64,000 nucleotides of DNA, from assembly GCF_028618695.1 (NCBI RefSeq), contig NZ_JAQIVI010000022.1:62001-126000 (forward strand), given 5' to 3'. A model generated the notes under the pieces. It made no database searches. It was not told the DNA's origin and saw only the letters and a list, made by a program, of their open reading frames with translations. Shown piece after piece: positions 1 to 24,957 of this stretch. The stretch is from Natrinema soli (lineage in GTDB: Archaea > Halobacteriota > Halobacteria > Halobacteriales > Natrialbaceae). The position numbers were made by a program, and so were the translations under genes. Within the stretch, counting starts at the first letter, position 1. Each line of letters begins with the position of its first letter.

Positions 1-1707
1 TTCATGGCCGGTGGGAGCGGTCGCGACGTCCTGTCGTCCGTCGAAGCGCTGCCGGAAGGCACGAACACAATACGGTGGGTGAACGTCGGCAAGAACGCGG
101 ACTCGAGCGGCTACAAAATGGCCCTGTACTCCCTTACGTTGCTCGACGAGGAAGACCGGGCCCGGAGAGACGACGCCGCCGAACTGGGCAACGCCAAACG
201 CGCGGTCTGGCTGTACTACGGACGGAACGGGATCGGCGGCGGCGGTACCCCACACGGCCACCGCGACGCGCTGAACATCGGGATCGCGGCCAACGAGATG
301 GAACTCGCGCGGGACCTCGGATACCCCGAACGGACCGGAACCTACGCGCCCCGGCAGTTCTTCACGGACAACACGCTCAGTCACAACACGGTCGTGGTCG
401 ACGAAGGGGGCCAGAAACACCACTGGGTCGGTGAGCCGCGACACTTCGAGGGGAACGACGAGCGCGTGAACCTGATCGACGTCGAGGCACCGAACGTCTA
501 CGACCAAACCGACGAATACCGCCGGACGACCGCCATGATCACCGTCGACGACGAGCACTCCTACGCGGTCGACTTCTTCACGGTCGAGGGCGGTGACGAT
601 CACCGCTTTAGCTTCCACGGAACGAAGGCGGACGTGTCGACCGAGGGGCTCCATCTCGTCGCCCAGGAGGGCGGTACTCTGGCCGGCGAGGACGTCCCCT
701 TCGGGGACGGCACGTACGACGAAGCGATGTACGATGCGGACGGCGCGCGCACGGCGGGTGCTGGCTTCAACTACTTCGACAACGTCGAACGCGATCGCGA
801 TCCCGGCGAAAAAATCGCGGTGGAATGGGACGTGGAGGATCACTTCGATGTCCGCGACGACGACGCCGAGGCCGTCCGCATGCGGCTGACCTCCTTCGGC
901 GACTTCGACGATGTCGCACTCGCGGACGGCTATCCGCCACAGAGCTCCAGCAGCGCTGAGCCCGAGCCCAGCATCCGGTACGCGTTCCTCAACCGCAGCG
1001 GGTCGGACCTCGAGAGCACGTTCGTTTCGACGATCGAGCACTACGAGGGTGAACGCGTCGTCGACTCCGTCGAGAAAGTCGACGTCACCGGCGGCGAGGC
1101 CCACGCGGTCAGGGTGGAACTCACGAGCGGGCGGACCGACTACATCGTCTGTGCGTTCGACGAGAACGCCACCCTCGTCGTCGACGAGACGTTCGAGTTC
1201 AAGGGGTTCTTCGGCGTCTACTCGGTCGAAGACGACGACCCCGAATACGCCTACGTCCACGACGGCAGACGGCTGGCTCCCCTCGGTAGCGGGCCGATAG
1301 TCCAGGAGGCGTACAGCGAAATCAAGGGGTTCGTCGAGGACTTCACGGAGGGAATGTCGCTCGAGAACGAACTCGCGGTTCGGATCGGCAGCGGCCACCC
1401 ACCGGAACTCGAGCGGCACGCCGGCTTCGTCTACGTCGACAACGACAACTCGGATCCCTGGCGCGGCGAGCCTGACCCGACGAACCCGATCGAAGGTCGC
1501 GACCAGCGCGGCCGAGGCAACGGCGCGTATCCGATCGAAGCGATCGGCGACGGCGGGGGGAACATCGTAACGGTCGACGTCGGCGATAAAACCTTCACCC
1601 GCGACTTCGTCGATTCCGAACAACTCGAAGCGGGCGGTTATAATTACATTATCGACGAGGACGACGATGTCAGGATCCCGTTGACGGCGACCTGGTCTCG
1701 CGAGTAA
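1..1707 (+). CDS. heparinase II/III-like polysaccharide lyase, C-terminal part (5' end outside window)
   Basis: The reading frame is open from the first base, so the N-terminal part, probably an alpha-helical toroid catalytic domain, lies upstream. The visible 568 residues contain the heparinase II/III C-terminal beta-sheet signature around residues 123-135 (LSHNTVVVDEGGQKHHW), followed by a long beta-rich acidic region. Members cleave uronic-acid polysaccharides such as heparin, chondroitin or alginate by beta-elimination. Two hexosaminidases and a sulfatase nearby favour an amino-sugar polymer. Signal peptide and substrate cannot be judged because the start is missing. Confidence 0.8.
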   Translation, partial: FMAGGSGRDVLSSVEALPEGTNTIRWVNVGKNADSSGYKMALYSLTLLDEEDRARRDDAAELGNAKRAVWLYYGRNGIGGGGTPHGHRDALNIGIAANEMELARDLGYPERTGTYAPRQFFTDNTLSHNTVVVDEGGQKHHWVGEPRHFEGNDERVNLIDVEAPNVYDQTDEYRRTTAMITVDDEHSYAVDFFTVEGGDDHRFSFHGTKADVSTEGLHLVAQEGGTLAGEDVPFGDGTYDEAMYDADGARTAGAGFNYFDNVERDRDPGEKIAVEWDVEDHFDVRDDDAEAVRMRLTSFGDFDDVALADGYPPQSSSSAEPEPSIRYAFLNRSGSDLESTFVSTIEHYEGERVVDSVEKVDVTGGEAHAVRVELTSGRTDYIVCAFDENATLVVDETFEFKGFFGVYSVEDDDPEYAYVHDGRRLAPLGSGPIVQEAYSEIKGFVEDFTEGMSLENELAVRIGSGHPPELERHAGFVYVDNDNSDPWRGEPDPTNPIEGRDQRGRGNGAYPIEAIGDGGGNIVTVDVGDKTFTRDFVDSEQLEAGGYNYIIDEDDDVRIPLTATWSRE

Positions 1708-1742
1708 ATGCGATTCGATCCCGTCGGTTTCGTGTGATCAAC

Positions 1743-3407
1743 TCACTCGATCTGGCGTTCGAGAGGGAGCGACTCGAGCGGTTTCGTCTCCCGACCGAGA
1801 ACCGTTACGAGAGCCCGGCCGGCCGTTTCAGGGATCGGTTCTGGCATGCCGAGTCTGTCCTGGACGTATGTCGCGACGTACGCGATGTCGTCGGGCAACC
1901 GCTCGTACTCGTTGGGCAGCCCGAGCGAGACGACGACGACCGGAAGCGCGTCGGACAGCGTGTCGACGACTCGTCGCTGTCCGTCCGGGAATTCCTCCCG
2001 GGTGTACGTCGTGACGACCGCGATGTCGACGGTATCGGCGATCGATCGAAGGGTTTCGAGGCGGGTATCGAGCGATTCGGGTTCGATCGGGGGTTTTGGA
2101 TCGGCGAGCGTCCGTCCGTCGCTCGGAGCGAGCGAACGGCCGACGACGTCGCCGAACGCGGCGTCGAACCGCGGTTCGAGTGAGCGAACGCCCCTGATAC
2201 CGGTCAGGAGGACGTCCACGTCGTCGGGCAGCGGCAGGACGTCCCCGCCGTCGAGAACAGTGTAGGACCGTTCGTACGCGGCCGCAGCGATCGATTCGTG
2301 CGCACGGCTTCCGGTCGTTTCAAGCGCCTCGAGCGGATCGACGCGCCGCCGCTCGGAGAGGTCATACGCGTCCTTTAGCGCCAGGATCCGCTCGACCGAC
2401 TCGTCGATGCGCGACTCGCGGATGTCGCCGGACGTGACCGCGTCGACGATCGCGTCGCGCATCTCGCGGAGGTCGGTGGCGGGGACGTACCCGGTGAGGA
2501 GGAGATCGACGCCGGCGTCGAGGGCTCGGACCGCGGCCTCGCCGACGCCGTAGTTGTCGGCGATCGCGTCCATCATCATCGCGTCGGTGATGACGACGCC
2601 GTCGAAGCCGAGGTCATCCCGAAGCAGGTCCGTGAGAACCGGCCGAGAGAGAGTCGCCGGCAGATCCGGATCAAGACAGTCGACGACGATGTGCGAGGTC
2701 ATGAGACAGTCGACGCCTTCCTCGATCATCGTCTCGAACGGCGGGAGGTGTACCCGTTCCAGCGTTTCCCGGTCGTAGGTGACGTGGGGCAACTCGTGGT
2801 GGGAGTCCTCGGCGGTGTCGCCGTGGCCGGGGAAGTGTTTCGCCACCGCGATCTGGTTCGTGGCGTGAATTCCGTCGAGCGCCGCCGTTGCGTACTCGGA
2901 GACCGTCTCGGGATCACTCCCGGGCGATCGGACGCCGATCACCGGGTTGTCGGGGTTCGTGTTGACGTCGACGACCGGTTGGTGGCTCGTGTTCAGTCCC
3001 ATCGCCAGCATATCGCGCGCGACGGCGGCGGAAACGTCTCTCGCGAGGTCGAGATCGCCCGCCGCGGTTCGACCCATGAGTGCCGGATACGCTCGAGTAC
3101 CGTGTTCGACGATGTCCACGGCCCCGTACTCGCAGTCACAGGAGAGTAACAGAGGGATTCCGTGGGATGTCCGCGTCGCCCACTGCTGGAGCCGGTTCGC
3201 GTACTGCGCCATGAAGTGCGGAGTCACCGCGTGCGAACCGTACACCCGGACCGCTCCAGGCTGAATCTCCTCGATGACGGTTTTCATCTCCTCGTCGGGC
3301 CACCCCGTTTCCGTCTCGAGGTGACCGAGGCCGATTCCCACGTGGAGCAACTGTCCCACCTTCGCTTCCAGCGATAACGCTTCGATCGTCGCTGTCGAAT
3401 CGTCCAT
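1743..3407 (-). CDS. beta-N-acetylhexosaminidase, glycoside hydrolase family 3 (NagZ-like)
   Basis: The 554-residue protein should remove terminal beta-N-acetylglucosamine. The GH3 TIM barrel fills about residues 1-345. It carries the NagZ-type loop KHFPGHGDTAEDSHHELP (190-207), which supplies the His-Asp acid/base pair, and the nucleophile Asp275 in VVITDAMMMD. The remaining 200 residues resemble the GH3 C-terminal domain, which short bacterial NagZ lacks. There is no signal peptide, so it is probably cytoplasmic and acts on imported oligosaccharides. It converges on the lyase gene with a 35-base gap. Confidence 0.92.
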   Translation of the reverse strand: MDDSTATIEALSLEAKVGQLLHVGIGLGHLETETGWPDEEMKTVIEEIQPGAVRVYGSHAVTPHFMAQYANRLQQWATRTSHGIPLLLSCDCEYGAVDIVEHGTRAYPALMGRTAAGDLDLARDVSAAVARDMLAMGLNTSHQPVVDVNTNPDNPVIGVRSPGSDPETVSEYATAALDGIHATNQIAVAKHFPGHGDTAEDSHHELPHVTYDRETLERVHLPPFETMIEEGVDCLMTSHIVVDCLDPDLPATLSRPVLTDLLRDDLGFDGVVITDAMMMDAIADNYGVGEAAVRALDAGVDLLLTGYVPATDLREMRDAIVDAVTSGDIRESRIDESVERILALKDAYDLSERRRVDPLEALETTGSRAHESIAAAAYERSYTVLDGGDVLPLPDDVDVLLTGIRGVRSLEPRFDAAFGDVVGRSLAPSDGRTLADPKPPIEPESLDTRLETLRSIADTVDIAVVTTYTREEFPDGQRRVVDTLSDALPVVVVSLGLPNEYERLPDDIAYVATYVQDRLGMPEPIPETAGRALVTVLGRETKPLESLPLERQIE

Positions 3408-3666: not shown

Positions 3667-4563
3667 TCAGTAGTACGGTTCGTAGTCGGCCAGAAACGGT
3701 GTACTGTCGACCGATGTCGCCGCGGGTATCACGTCCGCCTCGGACGAGACCGGCGTCCCCTCCTCGATGGCCGTCTGCACACCGAGATGCATCCGCGCAC
3801 CGTCGATCAGTCGATGCCGATCGTCGCGCTCACCGCGCGCCGCCGCGACGAACCCGTCGAGGAACGGGTCGTACATCCGCTCGAGTTCCGGAACTGTACT
3901 CTCGATCGTCACGGTATCCGTCCTGTCACCGACGGAAAGGAAGGCGAACGTGCCGTCCTGTTCTGACCCGTCGAAATCGAACGTGACGGTCGATCCGTCC
4001 TCGAAGTGGACCGCCGTCACGTGACCGTCGCTGTCGACCGGTTCGATCCGGATCCAGTCGACGCCGAGCACCGATCGAGCGGCGTCGATCAGGTGGACGC
4101 CGTAGTAAAACGGATCGCCGTAGCCCGAACAGAACAGCGTCTCCGGATTCGTCTCGGGCAACGCCGAAACGGCCGGATGAAACGGAACCGCCGAACCGCC
4201 GTACAACGGGGCGTCTCCCCGCTTGGCCGCGGCGGCGATCGCGTCGACGTCGGAAACGGAACCAGCGAGTGGTTTGTCGATCATCGTCGGCACGCCCGCC
4301 TCGAGGAAGGGGACGGCGAGCGGCCGATGCGTACACCAGTCGACGGTCAGGACCATCACGGCGTCGACCGCGTCGATCATCGCGCGGGAGTCGTCGTACC
4401 GGGTCGCATCGTGATCGGTACAAAACTCGTCTATGTACGTATCGTTTCGTCTGTCCCCGCTATCCCAGACTGCGCCGACGGTGGTATCGTCGCGGTCAGT
4501 GAGAACCGACGCAAACTTTTTGGGATGACTGGTGTCTAACCCGAGCATTCCGGTCTCGATCAT
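3667..4563 (-). CDS. Gfo/Idh/MocA family sugar oxidoreductase
   Basis: This 298-residue protein is an NAD(P)-dependent dehydrogenase of the glucose-fructose/inositol dehydrogenase superfamily. The N-terminal Rossmann fold lacks a textbook GxGxxG and has GLDTSHP instead, a variant seen in some members. The substrate-linker Lys lies in the MIDKPLAG segment (about 94-101), the equivalent of the EKP motif. Its place beside hexosaminidases suggests a sugar or amino sugar substrate; which one is unknown. It is separate from the GH3 gene by 260 bases that hold no recognisable gene, and it is divergent from the SDR at 4688. Confidence 0.85.
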   Translation of the reverse strand: MIETGMLGLDTSHPKKFASVLTDRDDTTVGAVWDSGDRRNDTYIDEFCTDHDATRYDDSRAMIDAVDAVMVLTVDWCTHRPLAVPFLEAGVPTMIDKPLAGSVSDVDAIAAAAKRGDAPLYGGSAVPFHPAVSALPETNPETLFCSGYGDPFYYGVHLIDAARSVLGVDWIRIEPVDSDGHVTAVHFEDGSTVTFDFDGSEQDGTFAFLSVGDRTDTVTIESTVPELERMYDPFLDGFVAAARGERDDRHRLIDGARMHLGVQTAIEEGTPVSSEADVIPAATSVDSTPFLADYEPYY

Positions 4564-5588: not shown

Positions 5589-6737
5589 TCAGACGTGCTC
5601 CGTCGCCCACACGAAGAACCTGAGCGGGAGGACCGTCTCGAGGAACGGATCGGTCGCTCGCAGGGCTTCACACCGGTTCGGCAGGCCGAACAACAGCGAC
5701 GTCAGCGTCGTCCGCTCGAGTTCGAGATCCGGCGCTCCCGTCTCCGGTTCGATCGACACCGACGCAGGTCCGTAGGCGACGCGGACCGACTCGCCGTCCA
5801 CGATCCCGAACTCAATCGATCCCTGTTCCGTTCGACCGCTCTGGATCCACCGGTCTTCGAGCTGACCGCGGAACGCTTCGAGGAGCCCGTGGAGGTCACA
5901 GATGCGGAGCTTCCGATGCGGATGGGCCGACCAGATTCTACTGTGGCGAGCGAACACGGGCTCGAGGGGGTGCCACGGTGGCACGCGAGCTGTCAGTTCG
6001 GTCAGGTCGTACACAGCCAGCACGTGCGAGAGCAGCGCCTCGAGGCCGGCTTCCGAACCACCGAACTCTTCGATCGTTCGCTTCGGACTCTCGCGAGTGA
6101 AGCTCACGTACGCCGGGTCGTCGTCACCGCCGTCATCCTCGTAGACGAGCGTCTCCAGACCGCGCTGACCGAAGACGGTCCGAGCGTCCGTCCGGTCACG
6201 GACGACGCGATACGGTTCAGCCTCGTGGATCCCGTGGAGCGTCTCGAGCTGTTCGTCAGTGTCGTAGCCGACAACCGATTCGGAGGCGATCGGTTCGCCG
6301 TCGAACGACCGGTCATCGAGAACGTACCGGTGCTCGTTCCCCGACAGCTCGTAGCCGAAGTGACCGTAGCGCTGTCGGTTCCCACTGAGATCCGAGAGCG
6401 GAACGCCGCGTTCATCCATCCTGTCGAACCAGAACTCGAGGAGTTGACTCATGTAGCCGTTGCCCCGATACCGTCGGTCAGTCGCGACGCCGCCGATGCC
6501 CCAACACTCGATCGTTCCCGTTCCGATCGAGAGCGTCTGGGGGATTGCCGCGATGTGACTTACGATCCGCCCGTCTTCGACGATAATCGCATGCCGGTCG
6601 CTGTGATCTCGATCGTAGGCGAACGGGAGTCGTGCCGCCATGCCACCGCGCTCGTTGGAGAAGTACCGATCCAGGAGCGCCATCAGCTCCGGGAACTCGT
6701 CCGGCGTTGCGAGCCGCGGTCCGTCGGGGTCGGTCAT
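5589..6737 (-). CDS. GNAT family N-acetyltransferase, Eis-like
   Basis: The predicted 382 residues start at MTDPDG; a longer upstream frame overlaps the promoter of the GH20 gene and has no homology-like sequence. Residues about 20-140 form a GNAT domain with the acetyl-CoA loop RRYRGNGYMSQLL. The rest resembles the second GNAT and sterol-carrier-like domains of Eis proteins. Eis-type enzymes acetylate amino groups on drugs, polyamines or sugars. In this location an amino-sugar role is possible but not shown. It converges on the SDR with a 37-base gap. Confidence 0.82.
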   Translation of the reverse strand: MTDPDGPRLATPDEFPELMALLDRYFSNERGGMAARLPFAYDRDHSDRHAIIVEDGRIVSHIAAIPQTLSIGTGTIECWGIGGVATDRRYRGNGYMSQLLEFWFDRMDERGVPLSDLSGNRQRYGHFGYELSGNEHRYVLDDRSFDGEPIASESVVGYDTDEQLETLHGIHEAEPYRVVRDRTDARTVFGQRGLETLVYEDDGGDDDPAYVSFTRESPKRTIEEFGGSEAGLEALLSHVLAVYDLTELTARVPPWHPLEPVFARHSRIWSAHPHRKLRICDLHGLLEAFRGQLEDRWIQSGRTEQGSIEFGIVDGESVRVAYGPASVSIEPETGAPDLELERTTLTSLLFGLPNRCEALRATDPFLETVLPLRFFVWATEHV

Positions 6738-9264: not shown

Positions 9265-9284
9265 TGTTTCATAGTGGTAAACGA
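9265..9284. promoter_or_regulatory. operator-like palindrome, site 3
   Basis: TGTTT and AAACGA flank nine bases (CATAGTGGT). The site lies just downstream of an AT-rich box at about 9248, where a transcription start would be expected, and about 70 bases before the chosen start codon at 9356. A bound regulator would block or affect that promoter. Confidence 0.48.
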
Positions 9285-9355
9285 TGAACTGTCGTCTTCA
9301 TTTCCGATTGTTCGGGGACCGAATACTTTTACCGTTCATCAGTGACTGTACTCGT

Positions 9356-10519
9356 ATGCCTGCAGTGTGGACGTACCCGTGGACGCTCTCCCGCGAAGGA
9401 ATCGCTGACGCGTGCGAGCGTCTCACGGAATGCGGCATCGACGCGGTGAACGTCGCCAGTCACTACCACTCGGTTCGGTCGATGCAGCCCCGGTTTCCGG
9501 CCGACCTGTTTCGGACCTACGCCGGCGGTTGTTACTTCGAACCGGACGAGGCGTTCGATCGCCTCCCGATCGACCCCACCGTCAATCGCGTCGGATCGTG
9601 GGACGATCCGCTGGCCGAAATCGTCGACGGTGTCCACGATCGCGGCATGGCCGTTAATGCGTGGACGGTCTGTTTGCACAACTCTCGGCTCGGAGCGACG
9701 AATCCCGAATATCGGATCGAAAGCGCGTTCGGCGATGCGCACGATCACTCGCTTTGTCCGTCCCATCCCGAGGTCCGGGCGTACTTCGCCGCGGTCGTCG
9801 ACTCGATTCGCGAGCGCGGCGTCGACGAAATTCAGCTCGAGTCGATCGGGTTTCCGAGCGCCTATCACGATCACGGTTCGCAGTTCGGTCACGACAAACA
9901 CCAGACGGTGACGACCGACGTCGAAGCGGCGCTCCTCTCGCAGTGCTTCTGTGACGGCTGTCGAGCGGCGGCGGCGTCACACCCGGTCGACCTCGAGCGG
10001 GCCCAGACGAGCGTGCGGGCGCTCGTTCGCAGATCGCTCGCCGATCCGACCGCGTCGCCGTCCTCTTTCGATGCCATCGTCGAACGCGAGCCGGTGCTCG
10101 GCAATCTCTTCGACTTTCGAGCGACCGTCGTCGAACGACTGCTCGAACGCCTCGCCGACGCCGCGGGCTCAGCGCCGCTCAACTATTACGCGATGGAAGC
10201 GTACGGCTCGGACCCGTCCGATCTGGCTCTCTCCGGTGTGCGACTTGCGGACCTCGAGGAGCATCTCGACCGGGTGACGGCGATTTGTTACGTCTCCGAT
10301 CCCGAACTCGCTCGCGAGCGGATCCGGACCCTCGACCACACCGGTGACCTCCCAGTCGATACCGGCATCACGCTCGATCCGAACGTCGTCGATCGACGCG
10401 AACAGCTGTGCGACCTCGTCGACGGCGTTCGATCGGTTACCGACGGCTCCCTCTCGATCTACCACCATTCGCTGGCGACCGAAACGCACCTCGAGTGGAT
10501 CGCGGACGCGCTGGCGTGA
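9356..10519 (+). CDS. uncharacterised TIM-barrel-like protein, putative glycoside hydrolase
   Basis: I chose ATG 9356 because an AT-rich box (AATACTTTTA, about 9320-9329) lies about 30 bases upstream and residue conservation seems to begin at MPAVWTYPW. An upstream in-frame ATG at 9284 would add 24 residues. The protein has alternating beta/alpha segments (GIDAVNVASHYHS, GMAVNAWTVCLHNS, GVDEIQLESIGFPSAY) and a C-F-C-D-G-C-R-A cluster after the fifth strand, a feature seen in some unclassified glycosidase-like barrels. No catalytic residues can be assigned. The context suggests action on a sugar polymer or glycoside. Confidence 0.7.
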   Translation: MPAVWTYPWTLSREGIADACERLTECGIDAVNVASHYHSVRSMQPRFPADLFRTYAGGCYFEPDEAFDRLPIDPTVNRVGSWDDPLAEIVDGVHDRGMAVNAWTVCLHNSRLGATNPEYRIESAFGDAHDHSLCPSHPEVRAYFAAVVDSIRERGVDEIQLESIGFPSAYHDHGSQFGHDKHQTVTTDVEAALLSQCFCDGCRAAAASHPVDLERAQTSVRALVRRSLADPTASPSSFDAIVEREPVLGNLFDFRATVVERLLERLADAAGSAPLNYYAMEAYGSDPSDLALSGVRLADLEEHLDRVTAICYVSDPELARERIRTLDHTGDLPVDTGITLDPNVVDRREQLCDLVDGVRSVTDGSLSIYHHSLATETHLEWIADALA

Positions 10520-10643
10520 TCGTCGCTCTGTGGTCGCTCGAGCGGAGTGACGCGGACCGACGACCGAAAGACATCGAATCTCGCGTTGTACGGGAATGCA
10601 AGCGGGCGGAACGTTTTTGCGCGACCGAAATCAATGTGCGCTC

Positions 10644-14388: not shown

Positions 14389-15119
14389 CGGGCGATCACG
14401 TGATTTTTGAGGGAGCCGACGCCGTCGAACTCGACCTCGACGGTGTCGCCGTCGCTGAGTCGATCGGGACCGAACGGCGTGCCGGTCGCGATGACGTCAC
14501 CCGGTTCGAGCGTGATCAACTCCGTGACGTCCGCGACGAGTTCGGGGACGGAGAAAATCATGCGCTCGCGGGTGGTCTCCTGTTTCGTCTCGCCGTTCAG
14601 GCGGAGCGTGAGCGTCGCGTCGGCGGGAACTTCGTCAGGGGCCGCGACGACCGGCCCCATCGGAAGCGAGGCGTCGAAGGCTTTGCCGCGCACCCAGTTG
14701 CGCTCTCGCTCCTGATCGTCGCGGTTCGAGATATCGTTGACGCACGTGAACCCGGCGACGACGTCCATGGCGTCCGCCTCCGGAACGCTGCGACACTGTT
14801 CGCCGATGACGATCCCGAACTCCGCTTCGAACTCGACGACATCCCGTCCCGGCGGCAGTTCGATGGTGTCGCCGTGGCCGACGACGCAGTTCGGCGTCTT
14901 CAGGAACAGTTCGGGGCGCTCGGGTCGCTCTTCGAACCCGGACTCTTCCCGGTGGTCCGTGTATCCGCCCGCCTGACAGACGATTTTCGTCGGGTCGGTC
15001 GGCGGGAGAACGTCCACCTCGTCGGGATTATACGTCCGCTCGTTCGCAACGATTCCGTCATCGGTCCACTCGCCGCGTCGAGTGTATCCGGTGGAGTCGC
15101 TGAATCGTACCATTCGCAT
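14385..15119 (-). CDS. fumarylacetoacetate hydrolase (FAH) family protein
   Basis: The FAH fold is shown by EFEAEFGIVIG (metal-binding acidic residues), FTCVNDISNRDDQ and GDVIATGTPFG near the C-terminus. I chose ATG 15119 (MRMVRF); ATG 15113 is two codons later. FAH members hydrolyse or decarboxylate 2,4-diketo acids and include 2,4-diketo-3-deoxy sugar-acid hydrolases. Translational coupling (ATGA overlap) to the SelA-like lyase suggests that it acts on the lyase product after oxidation, or on an isomer. Exact reaction is not determined by the sequence. Confidence 0.88.
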   Translation of the reverse strand: MRMVRFSDSTGYTRRGEWTDDGIVANERTYNPDEVDVLPPTDPTKIVCQAGGYTDHREESGFEERPERPELFLKTPNCVVGHGDTIELPPGRDVVEFEAEFGIVIGEQCRSVPEADAMDVVAGFTCVNDISNRDDQERERNWVRGKAFDASLPMGPVVAAPDEVPADATLTLRLNGETKQETTRERMIFSVPELVADVTELITLEPGDVIATGTPFGPDRLSDGDTVEVEFDGVGSLKNHVIAR

Positions 15120-15231: not shown

Positions 15232-16830
15232 TCAGGCCCGGATCGCGGTTCCCGGACGCGCGTTGGTGTCCTCCCCGTCGCGGACGATGGCCGTTCCGTC
15301 GACGAACACGTGTTCAATACCGATCGGGTGACGCTGCGGCTCGTCGAACGTCGCACGGTCGGTGACGACAGCGGGATCGAAGACGACTAGATCAGCGTCG
15401 AGTCCGGGCCGGAGCACGCCCTTCGAGTCGAACCCCATCGCTCGAGCGGGCAGCGACGTCATCTTTTGGACGGCCTCCTCGAGCGAGAGCAGGTTCTCCT
15501 CGCGGACGTACCGAGCGAGCACGCGGGGGAACGACCCGTAGACGCGGGGGTGGGGTCGTGAACCGAACAGTCCGTCCGTGCCGACCGCGACGCGGTCGCT
15601 CCCCATGATCGTCCGGACGTCGGACTCGATCAACCCGTGGGCGATCATCGACGCGTCGAGATCCTCCGCCAGCAACACGTCACAGAGGACGTCGACGGGC
15701 GTGCTGTCTCGCTCGCTCGCGATCGTCGCGATGTCCCGACCCTCCTGGTCGCGGAATTCGTCGGACGTGAGGTTCGTCACGTCGATCCGGTCCCAACCGG
15801 TCTTCCCGCCGACGTTCTCCCAGCCGTCGATTCGCCACTCTTCGATGTCCTTGCGGACCGTCTCGCGCTGTTCGGGATCGGCGAGTAGCTCCCGAACCGC
15901 GTCGGCGTCGTCCGACTGCACCCACGGAGGCAACAACGACGTCAGCATGCTGCTTCCCGCAGTATAGGGGTACTGGTCGGCGGTCACGTCGACGCCGCGT
16001 TCGCGGGCGATCTCGACCTGTGCGAGCAGACGATCGGCCTTCCCCCGCTGTTCGCCGCCGGTGAGTTTGAAGTGGGAGATGTGTAGCGGGATCCCGCGTT
16101 CGGCACCGATATCGATGAATTCGTCGAGTGCCTCCCAGATCCACCGCCCTTCGCTCCGGATGTGCGCGACGAAGGGGCGGCCGTAGGGCTCGAGTTCGGC
16201 CGCGAGTCGGGACACTTCTTCGGTACTCGAGTACACCTGTGGCGTATAGACGAGACCCGTCGAGAAGCCGATCGCACCGTCCTCGAGTCCCTCCGCGACG
16301 AGCGCCGCCATCTCCTCGAGTTCGCGATCGGTCGGTTCGACGTCTTCCATCCCGAGCACCTCGTATCTGGCAGTGCCGTGGCCGACGAGCGTCGCGACGT
16401 TCGGCGCGATTCCCGCGGCGTCGATCTCGTCTAGGTACTCATCGACGGAGGACCACGTCCACTCGCGCTCGAGTCGGCCCGCCAGGCCGCTGAGATATTC
16501 CTGCCACGATTCGATGTCATCCCCGCAGTAGAGCGGTGCCATCGAAAACCCGTCCTGACCGAGGATTTCCGTGGTGATCCCCTGCCGCGTTTTCGGCGCG
16601 AGCGCGGGATCGGCGAACAACTCGAGGTCCGAGTGCGAGTGCGCGTCGATAAACCCCGGACAGACGACACTGCCGTCGGCGTCTATCGTCGTCGCCGCGT
16701 CGAGTCCGTGATCGGGGGCCCGACAGACGCGGCGTATCGTGCCGTCGGTGACACCGACTGCGCCGCGAAACCAGGGCGCTCCCGTACCGTCGACGATGCG
16801 CGCATTCTCGACGAGCAAGTCGAGGCTCAT
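15232..16830 (-). CDS. N-acyl-D-amino-acid deacylase-like amidohydrolase
   Basis: The 532-residue protein has the amidohydrolase start LLVENARIVDGTGAPW and metal site HSH (64-66, in FIDAHSHSDLE). The segments GITTEILGQDGFSMAP, VAHIRSEG and HISHFKLTG, and the C-terminal LDADLVVFDP, are typical of the D-aminoacylase branch. Members remove acyl groups from D-amino acids, and related proteins act on other N-acyl compounds. Next to the SelA-like gene it could deacetylate N-acetyl-D-glucosaminate or a breakdown product. It lies 112 bases before the FAH gene on the same strand. Confidence 0.87.
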   Translation of the reverse strand: MSLDLLVENARIVDGTGAPWFRGAVGVTDGTIRRVCRAPDHGLDAATTIDADGSVVCPGFIDAHSHSDLELFADPALAPKTRQGITTEILGQDGFSMAPLYCGDDIESWQEYLSGLAGRLEREWTWSSVDEYLDEIDAAGIAPNVATLVGHGTARYEVLGMEDVEPTDRELEEMAALVAEGLEDGAIGFSTGLVYTPQVYSSTEEVSRLAAELEPYGRPFVAHIRSEGRWIWEALDEFIDIGAERGIPLHISHFKLTGGEQRGKADRLLAQVEIARERGVDVTADQYPYTAGSSMLTSLLPPWVQSDDADAVRELLADPEQRETVRKDIEEWRIDGWENVGGKTGWDRIDVTNLTSDEFRDQEGRDIATIASERDSTPVDVLCDVLLAEDLDASMIAHGLIESDVRTIMGSDRVAVGTDGLFGSRPHPRVYGSFPRVLARYVREENLLSLEEAVQKMTSLPARAMGFDSKGVLRPGLDADLVVFDPAVVTDRATFDEPQRHPIGIEHVFVDGTAIVRDGEDTNARPGTAIRA

Positions 16831-17039: not shown

Positions 17040-17804
17040 CTACTCGAGGATCGATCGGACGCACGCTACGTCAGCCTCGATGGCCTCGCGGTACGGCCGC
17101 TCGTCGGACACGAATTCGACGTTCGCGTAGCCGTCGAACCCGTGCTCGAGGAACGGGTTGAGGATCGCCGCGAGGTCGTAGTACGACTCGGCGAGCGCCG
17201 CCCGATCGCGTCCGGTCCGCTCGCGCGTCGTCTGCAGGTGTAACTGGTTCGAGAGCGGAGCGAGGGCCGCCGCCTCGCGCTCGAGTTCCGCCGCGGGGAT
17301 CGAGAATCCCGGCTGGTAGTTGAGTCCGCAACGCTCGTCTCCTATCGCCTCGATCAGGGCTTTCGCGCCCTCGAGACAGTTTGTCACCGTGTTATCGTGC
17401 TTCTCGACGGTAACCTCGATTTCGTGGTCGGCCGCCCTGTCGGTCACCCGTCGGAGGTCGGCGACGACCCGCTCCCAGTGTTCATCGTCGCGGCCGTCGT
17501 ACTCCTGGTTCCCCGCCCAGACGCGAATCGTCTCGGTTCCGAGCCGATCCGCGATCGCGAGTTCGTGCTCGAGCTCGTCGTCGAAGGCCTCGGTTCCGCA
17601 CCGTAGGTAGGAGCCGTAGGCGGCGATGTCAATCCCGTGTGCGGCCGCCGCCTCGACGATTCGGGTGCAGACTGGCTCGGAGCCGTCGCCGACGTGGTCT
17701 CGTCCCCAGATCTCGACGCCGTCGTACCCGACCTCGCTCGCGAGTTCGACGATTTCCTCGACGGGACGCTCTTTGGCGGAAACGGTACACAGTCCGACGT
17801 TCAT
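17040..17804 (-). CDS. sugar phosphate isomerase/epimerase-like TIM barrel
   Basis: The product starts MNVGLCTVSAKERPVEE and has 254 residues, the usual length of xylose-isomerase-like TIM barrels (AP endonuclease 2 superfamily). Segments GYDGVEIWGRD, TIRVWAGNQEYDG, EVTVEKHDNTV and GFDGYANVEFVSDE provide the Glu, Asp and His ligands expected for a divalent metal. An upstream in-frame extension to 18035 reads through intergenic sequence and is not used. Likely substrate: a keto sugar or sugar acid made by the neighbouring dehydrogenases. Confidence 0.85.
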   Translation of the reverse strand: MNVGLCTVSAKERPVEEIVELASEVGYDGVEIWGRDHVGDGSEPVCTRIVEAAAAHGIDIAAYGSYLRCGTEAFDDELEHELAIADRLGTETIRVWAGNQEYDGRDDEHWERVVADLRRVTDRAADHEIEVTVEKHDNTVTNCLEGAKALIEAIGDERCGLNYQPGFSIPAAELEREAAALAPLSNQLHLQTTRERTGRDRAALAESYYDLAAILNPFLEHGFDGYANVEFVSDERPYREAIEADVACVRSILE

Positions 17805-17949
17805 TCGTCGTTCTCCACTTCGATATGAGAGAGAGATGGGACTCTCAGGCTCAGGGCTATCGCGCCGAGTCGTCGGTGCTCCATGTATTCGTCCTGTCGC
17901 TTCAGCGGTAAAGCGATGGGGGATACGGCAGAACCCTCGCACGTGACGA

Positions 17950-20096: not shown

Positions 20097-21152
20097 TTAT
20101 CGAGAGTCCGGCGGCAGTTCACCGGATTCGACCAGCGCTTCCAGTGGGTTATCCTCGAGCTCTAGCGGCAGTTCCACGCGACCGCGGCGACGAGCTGACT
20201 CCCAGATACCGAAAACGATTTCGGTGGCCGCGAGCGCCGTCTCGCCGCTGCTGATTGGTTCTTCGCCGTTCGAGAGAGCGCTCACGACGTTCGCCATCGC
20301 CCTGTCCTGTGCGGGATCGTCGCCGACGTCGACCGTCCGCCACTCGCCCGTCTCGTCGGTTCGGATCCGGTACTCGTCGGCGAGTTGGTACTCGATCTCG
20401 CCGTCGGTTCCAACGAATCGATTCGTCTGCGCCCCGACCATGTCCATCGCCGCCCCGGTCGAACAGAGCGCATGAACCCCCGATTCGTACGCCCACGTAC
20501 CGAGGCTCTGTGCCTCCACGTGCATGTTCGTGTACCAGACGTGTTCTTCCGGATAGTCGATCTGGCCCAGTACCCACTCGACCGGTTCGTCGTCCATTAT
20601 ATAATTCGCGAGGTCAATATGGTGAAGGCCCGTCTGAAGCAGGTCTCGACGCCCGAATTCGATTCGTTCGAGGTCGCCGATAGCGCCATCGTCGATGACC
20701 GATTTGATCTCGGCGGCGGTATCGCGACAGCGGTTCTGTAGGTTGATCGTCAACTGGACGCCACAGTCATCGCACACATCGACGAGACGCCGACTCGCCG
20801 CGAGCGTCGGTGCCATCGGCTTCTCGCAGTGAATCGCATGCACGACATCGTGGCTGGCGCAGGTCTCGATCAGGTCGACGTGTGCGGACGGCGGCGTACA
20901 GATGCTGACGATGTCGGGCGCGGCAGCATCGAGCATCGCCTCGAGATCCGTAAAGACGCGATCGTTCGGAAGATCGAACGCGTCACCGAAGTCGGCGGCG
21001 CGTTCGGGATCGACGTCCGAACACGCGGTCAGCCGACACCCGTCGACGGTTTCGTAACTCCGCGCATGGCGGTATCCCATGGAGAACCCCTCGTGATCCG
21101 ATTTATCAGGGTGTGGTCCCGTGCCGACGATTCCGACTGTACGATCACTCAT
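20097..21152 (-). CDS. Gfo/Idh/MocA family oxidoreductase
   Basis: The 351-residue protein starts with a Rossmann motif (VGIVGTGPHPD) and has HCEKPMAPTLA, whose EKP Lys is the catalytic residue of the family. The N-terminal loop is longer than usual (HPDKSDHEGFSMGYRHARSY). The C-terminal alpha/beta domain is complete. It is one of three family members in the island; the next is upstream at 21259. Oxidation of an aldose at C1, or at C3 to start glycoside cleavage, are both known in the family. Confidence 0.88.
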   Translation of the reverse strand: MSDRTVGIVGTGPHPDKSDHEGFSMGYRHARSYETVDGCRLTACSDVDPERAADFGDAFDLPNDRVFTDLEAMLDAAAPDIVSICTPPSAHVDLIETCASHDVVHAIHCEKPMAPTLAASRRLVDVCDDCGVQLTINLQNRCRDTAAEIKSVIDDGAIGDLERIEFGRRDLLQTGLHHIDLANYIMDDEPVEWVLGQIDYPEEHVWYTNMHVEAQSLGTWAYESGVHALCSTGAAMDMVGAQTNRFVGTDGEIEYQLADEYRIRTDETGEWRTVDVGDDPAQDRAMANVVSALSNGEEPISSGETALAATEIVFGIWESARRRGRVELPLELEDNPLEALVESGELPPDSR

Positions 21153-21258: not shown

Positions 21259-22329
21259 CTAGCAGCGATTAACACCGTCGACGGTGACCCACTCGCCGGT
21301 TTCCGCCGATTCGTAGGCGGCATCGAGGATGTGAAGCACGCCGAGTGCATCGCCGAGCGTGACCGGCGCCTCGCCATCACTGTTGCAGGCGTCGAAGAAC
21401 GCCTCGACGAACTCCTTCCCCCACGAGCCGCCGTATCCCGTTTCCGACTCGTACTCGTGCGTGATCGTCCGATGGGGCGTACTGGCCCAGTCACCGCTCG
21501 CGTCGTCGAGTTCGAGTGTCGTCTCGTCGTTGAATCCGAACTCCCGCCCCATCGGATCCCAGCTACTCCGGCCATCGCTTCCGTAAATCTCGAGGTGTGT
21601 ATCGTAGAGACCCTCGCCGAGGTAGTACCCGCACTGAAGCGACCCGAGGGCACCGGCTGCAGTCTCCAGCTGGAGCGTCGCCGCGTCTTCGACCTCGACG
21701 CCGTCGGTCCCCGCGGTCGTACTGGCGTTGACGCGAGTAATGCGTTCGTCGAGGAGCCAGGCGAACAACTGGAGCCAGTGGATGCCAAGCCACTGCAGAA
21801 TGCCGCCGCGGCTCGCGTCCTCGTCGAAGAGGAAGTGGGACGTGTCCCGGAAGCGAAGTTGGGACGCGACGTACCGCGCGTCGAACGATCGAACGTCACC
21901 GAAGAATCCATCGTCGATGAGCGTTCGGAGTTCGTCCGTGATCGGATGAAACTGCCACGGATAGGACACGCAGACGGTCGAATCTGACCGCTCGGCGCGC
22001 GATACGAGGGGTTCGAGGTCGGCGGCGGTACGAGCGGCCGGCTTCTCGGTATACACGTCGATCCCCGCATCGAGTGCCCGTTCGATGGCCGCTGGCGTTT
22101 CCCGGTTCGAGAGCGTCACGAACACGGCGTCGAGCGGTTCCGACGATAACAATTCCTCGAGATTGCCGTACACCGGCACGTCTCCGAGGGCGGATACCGA
22201 CGCTGCGTCGAATTCCGGATTCGGCTCGCACGCGCTCGTTACCGTCCCCGATACCGTCTCGAGCGTGCGCAAGTACGGCTCCGCGTGGTGGTGATCCAGC
22301 CCGACGTAGCCGATATTTCGATCCGTCAT
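21259..22329 (-). CDS. Gfo/Idh/MocA family oxidoreductase
   Basis: The product starts MTDRNIGYVGLDHHHAEPY and has 356 residues. A much longer in-frame upstream extension overlaps the LLM gene and is an artefact. YTEKPAARTAADLE holds the EKP motif. The nucleotide loop GLDHHHAE departs from GxGxxG, as in the family member at 3667. ATG 22329 overlaps the stop of the LLM gene by four bases (ATGA), so the two are translationally coupled. Confidence 0.87.
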   Translation of the reverse strand: MTDRNIGYVGLDHHHAEPYLRTLETVSGTVTSACEPNPEFDAASVSALGDVPVYGNLEELLSSEPLDAVFVTLSNRETPAAIERALDAGIDVYTEKPAARTAADLEPLVSRAERSDSTVCVSYPWQFHPITDELRTLIDDGFFGDVRSFDARYVASQLRFRDTSHFLFDEDASRGGILQWLGIHWLQLFAWLLDERITRVNASTTAGTDGVEVEDAATLQLETAAGALGSLQCGYYLGEGLYDTHLEIYGSDGRSSWDPMGREFGFNDETTLELDDASGDWASTPHRTITHEYESETGYGGSWGKEFVEAFFDACNSDGEAPVTLGDALGVLHILDAAYESAETGEWVTVDGVNRC

Positions 22330-23312
22330 TGGTTCGAAAACGGTGGCATGACTTCCTCGCCGAACCGTTCGAGGGTCTCGAGCGTCACGTCCTGCGGTTG
22401 ACCGGGAAACTGACACCGTAGATAGATCTGATCGACGCCGAGATCCTCGTACTCGCGGAGCTGCTCGATGCACTCGTCGGGCGACCCGAGCACGAACTTC
22501 TCCTCGAGTGCGTCGTAGTCGACTTCTACCTCGTGTTCGTCCAGGTATGTCTGGCCCCAGCGGGCGTACCACTCGTACAGCTGCAGGAGGTGCGGTTCGA
22601 TGGTCTCGCGTGCCTCCTCGACGGAGTCGGCGACGAAGCAATCGCGCATCAGGACGATATCGTGCTCGGAACGATCCTCGCCGAACTCCTCGAGTGCATC
22701 CTCGTAGACGGTGATCTGCTGTTCGAGATCGTCCGACGTCGAGGAGGCGCTGGCGATCCAGCCGTTCCCGCGGTAGGCGGCCCGCTTGATGGCGATATCG
22801 GCGTGGCCACCGATCCAGATCGGGAGGTCGTTTTCGGGCCGCGGACTGACGAACACGTCGTCGAACGACCAGCGTTCGCCGTCGTGAGTGACGCTGTCTT
22901 CGTTCCAAAGGCGCTCGAGAACGGTGATCGATTCGATAAATGCCTTCGACCGTTCGTCCATCGCGACATCGAACGGTTCGAGTTCTCGCTCCCGATAGCC
23001 GATCGCTGCACCGAAGTGCATTCGTCCGTTGGAGAGACGATCAATCATCGAAACCTGCTCCGCGAGAGAGAGTGGATTGCGGAGCATCGGCAACACGGCC
23101 ATGGTCGCCAGATCGAGCGTCTCCGTTCGTGCGGCGATCGCGGAGAGCGCAGTGATCGGTTCGATGAAACCCTCCTCATGGACGTGTCGCTCGCCGAGAG
23201 CCACACCGTCAAATCCGAGCCGCTCCAGCAGGTCGACTTGTTCGTATACGTCTGTCACTTCGAACTCACTATCAGGCGTGTAGTATTGATTCAAGAATAC
23301 ACCGAACTTCAC
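22326..23312 (-). CDS. LLM-class flavin-dependent oxidoreductase (luciferase-like)
   Basis: The 328-residue luciferase-like TIM barrel begins with GTG (MKFGVFLNQYYTPDSEF when initiated). Family segments include GFDGVALGERH, LATMAVLPMLRNPL, LAEQVSMIDRLSNGR and a long insertion with FVSPRPENDLPIWIGG. Members use FMN or F420, and F420 is common in haloarchaea. It is the first gene of the ten-gene run ending at 11563. Why a flavin oxidoreductase is coupled to a Gfo/Idh enzyme is unclear; oxidation of a sugar or of a substituent is possible. Confidence 0.88.
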   Translation of the reverse strand: MKFGVFLNQYYTPDSEFEVTDVYEQVDLLERLGFDGVALGERHVHEEGFIEPITALSAIAARTETLDLATMAVLPMLRNPLSLAEQVSMIDRLSNGRMHFGAAIGYRERELEPFDVAMDERSKAFIESITVLERLWNEDSVTHDGERWSFDDVFVSPRPENDLPIWIGGHADIAIKRAAYRGNGWIASASSTSDDLEQQITVYEDALEEFGEDRSEHDIVLMRDCFVADSVEEARETIEPHLLQLYEWYARWGQTYLDEHEVEVDYDALEEKFVLGSPDECIEQLREYEDLGVDQIYLRCQFPGQPQDVTLETLERFGEEVMPPFSNQ

Positions 23313-23575: not shown

Positions 23576-23974
23576 AACAGCATTCGCTCGAGAGTCGGCC
23601 GCTCCCAAGGTATACTGCAAGACCCGTTATGCGCAACCGACAGCGATCAGGATGCCATTACAACGCTACAAATGTAAAAATATCGCTCACGCAGCACCGA
23701 TACCGTCACGAGCGTTCGAGATCGAGGCTCAGAGGTTTGGGAGAGTGAAACGACGGTCAGCAGGATCTGGCTACTTCGATCGCCGTTCGGTGGCCCGTAA
23801 GTGGGTGAATTCGACGTCTCGATTTGTTCCCTGTCCGTCGAGCCAGTGTGACAAGAGTAGGAACTCGCCGTCCGTCGTTGCGGTGAGAAACTGAGTACGG
23901 TATCTCGTACCGAACAGCCACGGCTACCGTCGTCGGGTTTCACCGCGTTTTCGCTTTACCGAGAGCAGCTACCC

Positions 23975-23984
23975 AAAACTATAA
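23975..23984 (+). promoter_or_regulatory. TATA-like box of the aldolase gene
   Basis: AAAACTATAA lies 35 bases before ATG 24019, which would leave a leader of about ten bases. This supports the ATG over the upstream in-frame GTG at 24004. Confidence 0.45.
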
Positions 23985-24018
23985 TGCTTGGTGCCTGTGA
24001 ACAGTGGTTGTAGAGACG

Positions 24019-24957
24019 ATGGGACACGACAAGGTATCCGAAAGTCTGCGAAGCGTTGCCTTCACGACGACGACGCCGTTCAACGACAATTGCGACCAGA
24101 TCCGACACGAGAAACTCGAAGCCAATATCAAAGCGATATATGATGAAGGCGCACGCGTCTTCATCCCGTGTGGAAATACGGGCGAATACTATTCGCTGTC
24201 ACAGAAGGAACGGATCGACGTCGTCCGCTCGACGGTCAACGCCGTCCCCGACGATGCCACGGTTGTCGGCGGGGCCGGAGGGAGCACTAAGAACGCGATC
24301 GAACTGCTCGAAGCGTACGAGGATATCGGCGCGGACGCGGCAATGATCATGTACCCTCGGCACACGTACGTCCACGAACAGGGGCTGATCGACTATTATC
24401 AAACGCTCGCAGACGCAACTGATCTCGGCATCGTCGTCTACAAACGCGGTCCACTTCTTAGCGAGGCTGTCCTCGATACCGTTACAGCATTCGAAAACGT
24501 CGTGGCCGTTAAGTACGCCGTCAACGACGTAAAGGAGTTCTCACGATTGACCGAAACCGTCTCGGCGGATGTCGTCTGGCTCAACGGCGTCGCCGAACGC
24601 TACGCCCTCTCCTATGCCCTCGAAGGCGCAGACGGATTCACGACGGGCATCGGGAACTTCGTTCCACGACCGGTTCTGGCGCTATCGCGCGCCTTGTCGG
24701 CCGACGACTGGTCTCGCGCAAAAGAGATTCGAGATGCGCTCCGACCGTACGAAGCGTTCCGCGAGGAGGCCGGGGGTGGGGCAGCATTTGCATCGGCGAA
24801 AAACGTCCCGGTCGTAAAACGCGGGATGGATCTTCAGGGATTGTACGGCGGCCCCGTCCGCGTTCCCCTCGTCGAACTCTCGAATGATGACCGAAACCGC
24901 GTCGAACGGTACCTCGAGCGAATCAAAAACATCGACTATCAGGTACCGTCTAGTTGA
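24019..24957 (+). CDS. dihydrodipicolinate-synthase family lyase (KDG aldolase or deoxy-ketoglucarate dehydratase-like)
   Basis: The 312-residue Schiff-base lyase starts MGHDKVSES. Family features are TTTPFNDNCDQ, the GNTGEYYSLS loop, Tyr141 in VVYKRGP and the Schiff-base Lys165 in VVAVKYAVND. Substrates in the family include 2-keto-3-deoxygluconate and 5-keto-4-deoxyglucarate. KR in place of the usual RT or RD after the Tyr, and the GIGNFVPRPVLAL segment, fit neither subgroup exactly. As the likely final step it would cleave a keto-deoxy sugar acid to pyruvate and a three-carbon product. Confidence 0.87.
   Translation: MGHDKVSESLRSVAFTTTTPFNDNCDQIRHEKLEANIKAIYDEGARVFIPCGNTGEYYSLSQKERIDVVRSTVNAVPDDATVVGGAGGSTKNAIELLEAYEDIGADAAMIMYPRHTYVHEQGLIDYYQTLADATDLGIVVYKRGPLLSEAVLDTVTAFENVVAVKYAVNDVKEFSRLTETVSADVVWLNGVAERYALSYALEGADGFTTGIGNFVPRPVLALSRALSADDWSRAKEIRDALRPYEAFREEAGGGAAFASAKNVPVVKRGMDLQGLYGGPVRVPLVELSNDDRNRVERYLERIKNIDYQVPSS

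What the first reader, a model, noticed from the sequence alone, without database searches (positions are those of the whole stretch)
1..24957. Candidate haloarchaeal cluster for intracellular breakdown of sulfated amino-sugar oligosaccharides without phosphorylation
Seen: a heparinase II/III-like lyase, GH3 and GH20 N-acetylhexosaminidases, a sulfatase, a PIG-L deacetylase, a D-aminoacylase-like amidohydrolase, a SelA-like lyase, an FAH enzyme, dehydrogenases and a DHDPS-family lyase in one block. Known: GH20 needs a 2-acetamido sugar; SelA-like DgaE makes a keto-deoxy acid from glucosaminate phosphate. Inference: lyase and glycosidases give GlcNAc or GalNAc, deacetylation and C1 oxidation give glucosaminate, the SelA-like lyase gives 2-keto-3-deoxygluconate, and the aldolase-like enzyme gives pyruvate. 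No sugar kinase and no transporter is seen in the window, and no signal peptides on the hydrolases. A complete non-phosphorylated route of this kind in archaea is not one I know.
Basis: partly seen in the sequence, partly recalled or inferred. Interest (0 to 1): 0.78.

Follow-up and report, generated by a model that had tools for sequence, protein, structure and literature searches.

The report
Salt-loving archaeon's amino-sugar-polymer breakdown gene cluster
A plasmid-type gene cluster in salt-loving archaea looks built to cut an amino-sugar polymer outside the cell, import the pieces and deaminate the sugar acid without first adding phosphate, a step that a published prediction had assumed to need phosphate.

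Summary
The genes are real; 1-24940 matches a Natrinema zhouii megaplasmid at 94.8%. Corrections: in that relative an Opp-type ABC importer lies just outside the window's edge and the heparinase-like protein has a Tat signal, so cutting is probably extracellular, while GH20, GH3, sulfatase and deacetylases lack signals.

The SelA-like protein belongs to a large haloarchaeal family tied to PIG-L deacetylases. It keeps the PLP lysine but lost the three-arginine phosphate site proposed for DgaE (all three in 116 of 116 DgaE-type rows; at most one in any of 120 close relatives of the window protein). NagB was found in 0 of 8 genomes. I favour a non-phosphorylated 2-amino-2-deoxyhexonate ammonia-lyase making a 2-keto-3-deoxy acid.

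SelA, FAH, a D-aminoacylase-like enzyme and the isomerase-like gene occur in the window and all six relatives' regions examined. What follows is unproven: PfkB kinases exist elsewhere; the FAH partner suggests a diketo-acid split to pyruvate plus glycerate. An amino-sugar route was predicted in print in 2025, with a kinase step that this evidence argues against. 'Sulfated' is weakly supported. New variant of a known kind.

The parts
1..1707 (+). C-terminal part of a heparinase II/III-like protein (start lies outside the window); candidate exported polysaccharide lyase
   Evidence: Pfam PF07940 25.8 bits, cut-off 24; full-length N. zhouii homologue has Tat motif RRSFL
1743..3407 (-). GH3 glycosidase with a NagZ-type motif; candidate beta-N-acetylhexosaminidase, no signal
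   Evidence: Pfam PF00933 E 2.7e-80; motif KHFPGHGDTAEDSH (meaning recalled)
3667..4563 (-). Gfo/Idh/MocA-like oxidoreductase 1
   Evidence: Pfam PF01408
4688..5551 (+). SDR dehydrogenase; candidate sugar 1-dehydrogenase, or 2-keto-3-deoxy acid dehydrogenase/reductase
   Evidence: Pfam; NCBIfam 'glucose 1-dehydrogenase' subfamily model 226.2 bits over cut-off 215
5589..6737 (-). GNAT acetyltransferase, role unknown
   Evidence: Pfam PF13527
6984..8723 (+). GH20 beta-N-acetylhexosaminidase, no signal
   Evidence: Pfam PF00728 E 1.5e-62; PDB GH20 matches, GGDE pair kept
9284..10519 (+). glycosidase-like TIM-barrel protein (DUF4015-like), unidentified
   Evidence: Pfam DUF4015 24 bits, below cut-off 27; weak Foldseek matches to glycosidases incl. 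Cwp19 and PgaB C-domain (model pLDDT 72)
10596..11465 (+). PIG-L (CE14-type) de-N-acetylase
   Evidence: Pfam PF02585 E 1.3e-29; beside SelA across haloarchaea
11563..13041 (-). type I sulfatase with CLPSR motif; accessory
   Evidence: Pfam PF00884; close counterpart in 1 of 6 relatives' regions
13168..14388 (-). SelA/DgaE-like PLP enzyme; proposed non-phosphorylated 2-amino-2-deoxyhexonate ammonia-lyase
14385..15119 (-). FAH-family protein overlapping SelA by 4 bases; proposed 2,4-diketo-3-deoxy acid hydrolase
   Evidence: Pfam PF01557; PDB matches; HxxE and metal-ligand-like motif
15232..16830 (-). D-aminoacylase-like amidohydrolase; candidate de-N-acetylase of the N-acetylated sugar acid
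17040..17804 (-). AP_endonuc_2 / xylose-isomerase-like protein (role unknown)
   Evidence: Pfam PF01261; in 6 of 6 relatives' regions at 52-94% identity
17950..19947 (-). AXE1/S9-like esterase
   Evidence: Pfam
20097..21152 (-). Gfo/Idh/MocA oxidoreductase 2 (best NCBIfam hit haloarchaeal xylose dehydrogenase Gfo6, 75 bits, cut-off 350)
21259..22329 (-). Gfo/Idh/MocA oxidoreductase 3
   Evidence: annotated in N. zhouii
22326..23312 (-). LLM-class (luciferase-like) oxidoreductase
   Evidence: Pfam PF00296
24004..24957 (+). DHDPS-family lyase, closest to 5-dehydro-4-deoxyglucarate dehydratase models
   Evidence: in 5 of 6 relatives' regions

Best explanation
A polysaccharide-utilisation cluster, plasmid-borne in its closest relative, for an N-acetylhexosamine-containing polymer. 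An exported (Tat) heparinase-like lyase cuts the polymer; an Opp-type ABC importer just outside the window takes up oligosaccharides; cytosolic GH20 and NagZ-type GH3 release GlcNAc or GalNAc. Deacetylation (PIG-L on the sugar, or the D-aminoacylase-like enzyme on its C1-oxidised acid) and C1 oxidation (the SDR, a Gfo enzyme or an unlinked glucose dehydrogenase) give the free 2-amino-2-deoxyhexonate. The SelA-like PLP enzyme then eliminates ammonia from the unphosphorylated acid, giving a 2-keto-3-deoxyhexonate such as KDG. The FAH enzyme, whose gene overlaps selA, may act after oxidation of this product, splitting a 2,4-diketo acid to pyruvate and glycerate. Tested here by computation only: families, motifs, gene linkage, loss of the proposed phosphate site, absence of NagB. 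Inferred: substrates, order of steps, and everything after the keto-deoxy acid.
For: [quoted passage not shown] PLP lysine kept in 120 of 120 close relatives, while the Arg-301/332/346 cluster that the DGL paper places by manual docking at the substrate phosphate (PMC9529869) is complete in 116 of 116 DgaE-type rows and in 0 of 120 close relatives (89 have none, 31 have one); a second set of 61 haloarchaeal sequences gives 52 with none and 9 with one. PIG-L within 3 kb of 7 of 10 SelA genes in 8 genomes; in the 4 genomes with a single PIG-L it is the SelA neighbour in 4 of 4. Among 58 haloarchaeal SelA loci: PIG-L in 34, RidA in 27, galactonate-dehydratase-like in 27, IclR in 26, glucose-dehydrogenase-like in 21, ABC sugar-binding protein in 19 (families, counts). 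RidA would fit an enamine/imine-releasing lyase (inference). NagB (PF01182) in 0 of 8 genomes, while it rings in 9 of 14 controls (completeness of the 8 is not given). SelA, FAH, D-aminoacylase-like and AP_endonuc_2-like genes in 6 of 6 relatives' regions; their SelA proteins and the window's form one clade (SH-aLRT 100, 7 rows). FAH keeps HxxE, like the hydrolase of the bacterial SDR+FAH route (PMC6336799).
Against: No substrate is tested. The fold does not fix the reaction: 8t7j, an equally near fold, is the oxygen-dependent Cap15, and it keeps all three arginines. The DGL site rests on manual docking, and the DgaE rows are close relatives of one query. The window keeps one of the three arginines, and its family has conserved arginines of its own (R26, R33, R49, R116, R223, R311, R367) that might make another anion site. 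RidA and glucose dehydrogenase, typical of the wider family, are not within about 10 kb of SelA in L001-L004. The D-aminoacylase-like protein lacks the cysteine metal ligand of OngB and AfDam (GQDG for GNCG), and its relatives of about 60% identity sit beside amino-acid or peptide genes in 3 of 5 regions viewed. No GH88 is in the cluster (nearest in N. zhouii about 75 kb away). SDR (at 81-97%), heparinase, GH3 and GH20 are missing from 2 of 6 relatives' regions, so they are not part of the invariant core, and the Natrononativus isomerase-like gene is only 52% identical and about 16 kb from selA.
Confidence: 0.55

Rival explanations
1. Phosphorylated route: a sugar kinase elsewhere phosphorylates glucosaminate, the SelA-like enzyme is a true glucosaminate-6-phosphate ammonia-lyase and KDPG enters the Entner-Doudoroff pathway, as proposed for Natrarchaeobius.
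For: Published prediction (PMC12343721); PfkB-family genes in 4 of 4 genomes searched (none assigned a substrate).
Against: The three DgaE phosphate arginines are never present together in the 120 and 61 sequences examined, including the Natrarchaeobius loci L032, L037 and L038; scores far below the DgaE cut-offs (215.9 of 385.3, 212.2 of 600).
Confidence: 0.15
2. KDG is made without phosphate but then phosphorylated by an unlinked KDG kinase and split by KDPG aldolase (semi-phosphorylative Entner-Doudoroff). FAH, Gfo and DHDPS genes then serve another sugar of the polymer, for example a uronate.
For: DHDPS-family gene about 3 kb from a glucose-dehydrogenase-like gene on contig C1 (3.8 Mb) of N. 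zhouii; PfkB-family genes present; window DHDPS protein resembles 5-dehydro-4-deoxyglucarate dehydratase.
Against: FAH overlaps SelA by 4 bases and is kept with it in 6 of 6 relatives' regions, which argues for a shared substrate line.
Confidence: 0.4
3. The D-aminoacylase-like/SelA/FAH/isomerase core handles N-acyl-D-amino acids or an unrelated acid, and lies beside a glycan cluster only by plasmid shuffling.
For: D-aminoacylase relatives at about 60% identity include copies beside amino-acid or peptide genes; two relatives' regions lack GH20, GH3 and heparinase.
Against: PIG-L or glycosidase genes are in 6 of 6 relatives' regions, and SelA's wider family is tied to PIG-L, ABC sugar import and GH3.
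Confidence: 0.15
4. Gfo and AP_endonuc_2-like proteins form a 3-keto-glycoside module: oxidise C3 of an amino-sugar glycoside, then cleave it by elimination; SelA and FAH process the product.
For: Two of the three window Gfo proteins show weak matches to a glycoside 3-dehydrogenase model (the third does not); an AP_endonuc_2-like match and a Gfo gene (by match or annotation) are in 6 of 6 relatives' regions. The module itself is recalled.
Against: All these matches lie far below the curated cut-offs; GH20 and GH3 already offer hydrolytic release.
Confidence: 0.12

Closest known systems
Predicted GlcNAc route of Natrarchaeobius chitinase clusters (PMC12343721, 2025)
   Same: CE14/PIG-L deacetylase, sugar dehydrogenase and a SelA-like lyase beside glycosidases and ABC import, in haloarchaea.
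   Different: That cluster has chitinases, glucose dehydrogenase, a RutC/RidA-type gene and IclR, and the authors insert an unknown kinase; the window type has heparinase-like, FAH, D-aminoacylase-like and isomerase-like genes instead. The SelA-like proteins of both lack the three-arginine site.
ong pathway of chitin oxidation, Pseudoalteromonas (PMC9537276)
   Same: Deacetylation of an N-acetylhexosaminic acid by a D-aminoacylase-type enzyme, then PLP-dependent deamination of free glucosaminate to KDG.
   Different: OngB keeps the Cys ligand (PMC12017989); RidA and KDG kinase are in the cluster; bacterial; substrate made with an LPMO. Whether OngC is SelA-like was not tested.
[quoted passage not shown]
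   Same: Among the two nearest folds and the nearest sequence family; PLP lysine.
   Different: Phosphate arginine cluster lost, a 27-residue insert, scores far below the family cut-offs.
Route III SDR + FAH hydrolase of L-fucose, L-rhamnose and pentoses (PMC6336799)
   Same: A 2-keto-3-deoxy acid oxidised by an SDR and split by an FAH hydrolase with a His/Glu pair; no phosphate.
   Different: Described there for deoxyhexoses and pentoses; here it would be a C6 acid from an amino sugar; not assayed.
Haloarchaeal glycosaminoglycan loci (PMC13260240, 2026)
   Same: Plasmid-borne, Tat-exported lyase, ABC import, sulfatase, intracellular finishing.
   Different: Those use PL8, GH88 and GH154, and the authors send the amino sugar to fructose 6-phosphate.

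Membership tests
DgaE (TIGR01437 / NF047797) | score over the curated cut-off | tested here: not met
   215.9 of 385.3 and 212.2 of 600
DgaE (TIGR01437 / NF047797) | PLP-binding lysine and SelA-type fold | tested here: met
   K220 aligned with K213; 7lc0 first by E-value, TMq 0.79
DgaE (TIGR01437 / NF047797) | Arg-301/332/346 phosphate site and His-163 proton donor | tested here: not met
   window T, G, R at the three sites; F170 or a gap for His-163, depending on the alignment
OngB-type GlcNAc1A deacetylase | subtype V metal ligands Cys97/His222/His252 | tested here: not met
   Cys replaced by Asp (GQDG); both His kept
OngB-type GlcNAc1A deacetylase | Ser292 and Gln298 in place of Thr and Leu/Arg | tested here: inconclusive
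   Ser294 in the window but Thr in 2 of 6 relatives (Halovivax, H. rarus); Gln298 site is Leu300 in an ungapped reading
Haloarchaeal GlcNAc cluster (Natrarchaeobius type) | SelA-like with PIG-L | tested here: met
   5 of 6 relatives' regions plus the window; in Natrononativus the nearest PIG-L is about 28 kb from selA
Haloarchaeal GlcNAc cluster (Natrarchaeobius type) | glucose dehydrogenase, RidA and IclR alongside | tested here: not met
   no member of the RidA or glucose-dehydrogenase groups in L001-L004; IclR group in L002 only (about 10 kb each side)
Route III 2,4-diketo acid hydrolase (FAH) | His/Glu pair and metal-ligand motif | tested here: met
   HREE at 57; E.E...D motif; HpaG-type decarboxylase 1gtt also shows HxxE
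Route III 2,4-diketo acid hydrolase (FAH) | activity on a diketo-deoxy acid | not testable with these tools
   needs enzyme assay
PL8 glycosaminoglycan locus of haloarchaea | PL8 lyase with GH88 and GH154 | tested here: not met
   no PL8 or GH88 match among the scanned cluster genes; GH88 about 75 kb away in N. zhouii; GH154 not tested
GH20 beta-N-acetylhexosaminidase | Pfam cut-off and Asp-Glu pair | tested here: met
   212.4 bits, cut-off 22.3; GGDE

The most novel reading that the evidence does not exclude
A fully kinase-free amino-sugar route in archaea: the N-acetylated hexonate is deacetylated by the D-aminoacylase-like enzyme, the free aminohexonate is deaminated by the SelA-like lyase to KDG, KDG is oxidised at C4 by the SDR or a Gfo enzyme, and the FAH enzyme splits the diketo acid to pyruvate and D-glycerate.
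Probability: 0.22. Interest if true: 0.72.

Novelty: new variant of a known kind. Interest (0 to 1): 0.52.

Why it matters
In the 8 haloarchaeal genomes searched NagB was not found, so their way of using GlcNAc is unassigned, though some haloarchaea grow on chitin and glycosaminoglycans. A large haloarchaeal SelA-like family without DgaE's phosphate pocket would supply the missing step, would correct the published kinase-dependent prediction, and gives one assayable protein that settles it. The FAH/D-aminoacylase variant would add an aminohexose branch to the known kinase-free diketo-acid routes.

Tried and rejected
Filing the SelA-like protein as DgaE: rejected on cut-offs and lost arginines. 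Filing the amidohydrolase as OngB: rejected on the metal ligand. Taking the DHDPS protein as KDG aldolase: not supported. Glycosaminoglycan locus of the published PL8 kind: not matched. Sulfated substrate: weak; moreover an FGE (PF03781) was found in 2 of 8 genomes and not in N. zhouii, so how the CLPSR sulfatase would mature is open. The structure of the DUF4015-like protein gave only weak glycosidase-like matches. I first thought the D-aminoacylase might replace PIG-L in Natrononativus (none in 49 kb), but the same plasmid has PIG-L genes about 28 and 44 kb from selA. Literature searches for prior reports; only PubMed Central papers under open licences are covered.
Full report
What is there. 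Pfam and NCBIfam scans confirm the listed enzymes in window 1-24957 and add an SDR, a third Gfo gene and others. The heparinase assignment is marginal (25.8 bits, cut-off 24) and its start lies outside the window. The block matches plasmid unnamed2 of Natrinema zhouii YPL30 from base 1 to 24940 in two pieces at 94.8%. The next 24 kb of the window match that plasmid only in scattered pieces elsewhere, 7% of the query, so the shared stretch ends with the cluster. No whole genome is held for the window, so genome-wide statements are about relatives.

Corrections to the observation. In N. zhouii an ABC ATPase, two permeases and an SBP_bac_5 binding protein precede the heparinase gene. The full heparinase has RRSFL followed by a hydrophobic stretch. 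The binding protein has a lipobox, and from a longer start an RRKMM motif that I read by eye. GH20, GH3, sulfatase, PIG-L, SelA-like, FAH and D-aminoacylase-like proteins show no such signal, and neither does the second, PKD-type heparinase of N. zhouii (a simple motif and hydropathy test, not SignalP). So cutting outside and finishing inside is the better reading.

The SelA-like protein. In a PDB sequence search DGL/DgaE 7lc0 is first (E 2.1e-44) and 8t7j second; Foldseek with the predicted model (pLDDT 88) gives the same two. 8t7j is Cap15, an oxygen- and PLP-dependent enzyme, so the fold does not by itself prove an ammonia-lyase. The FEBS Letters paper on DGL (passages read) docks the substrate phosphate by hand at Arg-301, 332 and 346 and names His-163 as proton donor. 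My alignment held 116 of the 120 listed DgaE-query hits (filter 355-380 residues; 2565 were found), the 120 listed hits of the window's protein (of 6655 found; 62-97% identical, those with names haloarchaeal), 21 of the 22 non-haloarchaeal loci (20 bacterial, 1 Nitrososphaerales) and one PDB chain. All three arginines are present in 116 of 116 DgaE rows and in Cap15, in 0 of 120 of the window's relatives (89 none, 31 one) and in 0 of 21 non-haloarchaeal rows (21 none). The window keeps only the Arg-346 equivalent. A separate alignment of 61 haloarchaeal sequences (58 loci, window, H. rarus, Natrononativus) gives 52 none and 9 one, with the lysine kept in 61 of 61. A histidine sits at the His-163 site in 3 of 120 rows and in none of 61, where the site is a gap. 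The H163A mutant of DGL releases an enamine, and RidA lies in the loci of 27 of 58 haloarchaeal SelA genes. That link is an inference. Against it: the family has conserved arginines of its own.

Neighbourhoods. In the 58 haloarchaeal loci of these 80: PIG-L 34 (29 within 3 kb), RidA 27, galactonate-dehydratase-like 27, IclR 26, glucose-dehydrogenase-like 21, ABC binding protein 19, GH3 10, GH20 5 (families). My simple gene caller misses some genes: FAH and the D-aminoacylase-like gene are seen by tblastn in L001-L004, fewer by the caller. This wider type resembles the cluster described for Natrarchaeobius (PMC12343721, section 11 read in full), where the authors propose CE14, glucose dehydrogenase, an unknown kinase and a DGL homologue.

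The window type. Over regions of 42-80 kb in six relatives (N. zhouii, Halovivax, Halalkalicoccus, Saliphagus, H. rarus, Natrononativus), SelA, FAH, D-aminoacylase-like and AP_endonuc_2-like genes are in 6 of 6 (the last at 52-94%, and in Natrononativus about 16 kb from selA); PIG-L and DHDPS in 5 of 6; heparinase, GH3, GH20 and a close SDR (81-97%) in the same 4 of 6 (Saliphagus has only a 33% SDR); a close counterpart of the sulfatase in 1 of 6, though H. rarus has another sulfatase-family gene and Natrononativus an annotated sulfatase at the edge of its region. Two sister loci keep GH20, S9, AP_endonuc_2-like and heparinase but show no FAH or D-aminoacylase-like gene within about 10 kb (L005, L008); their genomes G005 and G006 have no D-aminoacylase match at E 1e-60. 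In the tree (67 rows, quick method) the window type is one clade with SH-aLRT 100. SDR going with the heparinase could mean that it serves the lyase branch (for example reducing a uronate-derived diketo acid) and not the FAH step.

Genome background. In 8 genomes reached through the loci (completeness not given), NagB was found in 0 of 8; a single-copy PIG-L sits beside SelA in 4 of 4 such genomes. PfkB-family genes are in 4 of 4 genomes searched, so a later KDG kinase step cannot be excluded.

After the keto-deoxy acid. FAH overlaps SelA by 4 bases. Its HxxE pair and metal motif match C-C bond hydrolases, as in the bacterial SDR+FAH route (PMC6336799, passages), but an HpaG-type decarboxylase shares HxxE. 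The DHDPS protein resembles 5-dehydro-4-deoxyglucarate dehydratase, below cut-off.

Deacetylation. PIG-L is the better-supported deacetylase. The D-aminoacylase-like enzyme is of the AfDam/BbDam/OngB kind but has Asp for the Cys ligand, and its Ser294 is not fixed in the clade. Its relatives of about 60% identity were viewed in 5 regions: 3 lie beside amino-acid or peptide genes (52, 54, 55), 2 tell little (51, 53).

Verdict. A real, conserved cluster for an amino-sugar polymer, whose most testable claim is a phosphate-free SelA-like ammonia-lyase. It is a variant of a route already predicted for haloarchaea; I found the FAH/D-aminoacylase core in no paper that I opened after the searches named in Tried and rejected. 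Papers: PMC12343721 passages and section 11; PMC9537276, PMC9529869, PMC12017989, PMC6336799 and PMC8305020 passages; PMC13260240 abstract, outline, passages and section 14.

Noticed in passing
window 17804-17950 against L081 27084-31761: N. zhouii has a PKD-heparinase gene of about 3.7 kb between the isomerase-like and S9-like genes; the window and the Natrialba locus L008 have these two genes side by side, so the extra gene may be an insertion in N. zhouii.
   Followed up: partly
window 27596-29050: Orc1/Cdc6-type replication protein soon after the end of the cluster, where the shared stretch with the N. zhouii plasmid ends and G+C falls to about 52-56%; several of its best matches are orc1/cdc6 genes of other Natrinema plasmids, which suggests another plasmid arrangement.
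   Followed up: partly
window 59895-62818: Two adjacent UbiD-family decarboxylase genes, the second a weaker match.
   Followed up: no
window 11563-13041: Sulfatase with a CLPSR maturation motif, yet no FGE (PF03781) match in the N. zhouii genome; how such sulfatases mature there is unexplained.
   Followed up: partly
L056-L066, L068, L069, L072-L078, L080: SelA-like relatives at 38-48% identity, mostly in Chloroflexi/SAR202, Acidobacteria and Alphaproteobacteria MAGs, also lack all three DgaE phosphate arginines (none in 21 of 21 rows); a wide family without a named function here.
   Followed up: partly
L010:8853-9878 and relatives: An unassigned protein of about 341 aa beside SelA in 9 of 58 haloarchaeal loci (8 within 3 kb); no Pfam match at E 0.01 and no NCBIfam match at E 1e-10.
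   Followed up: no
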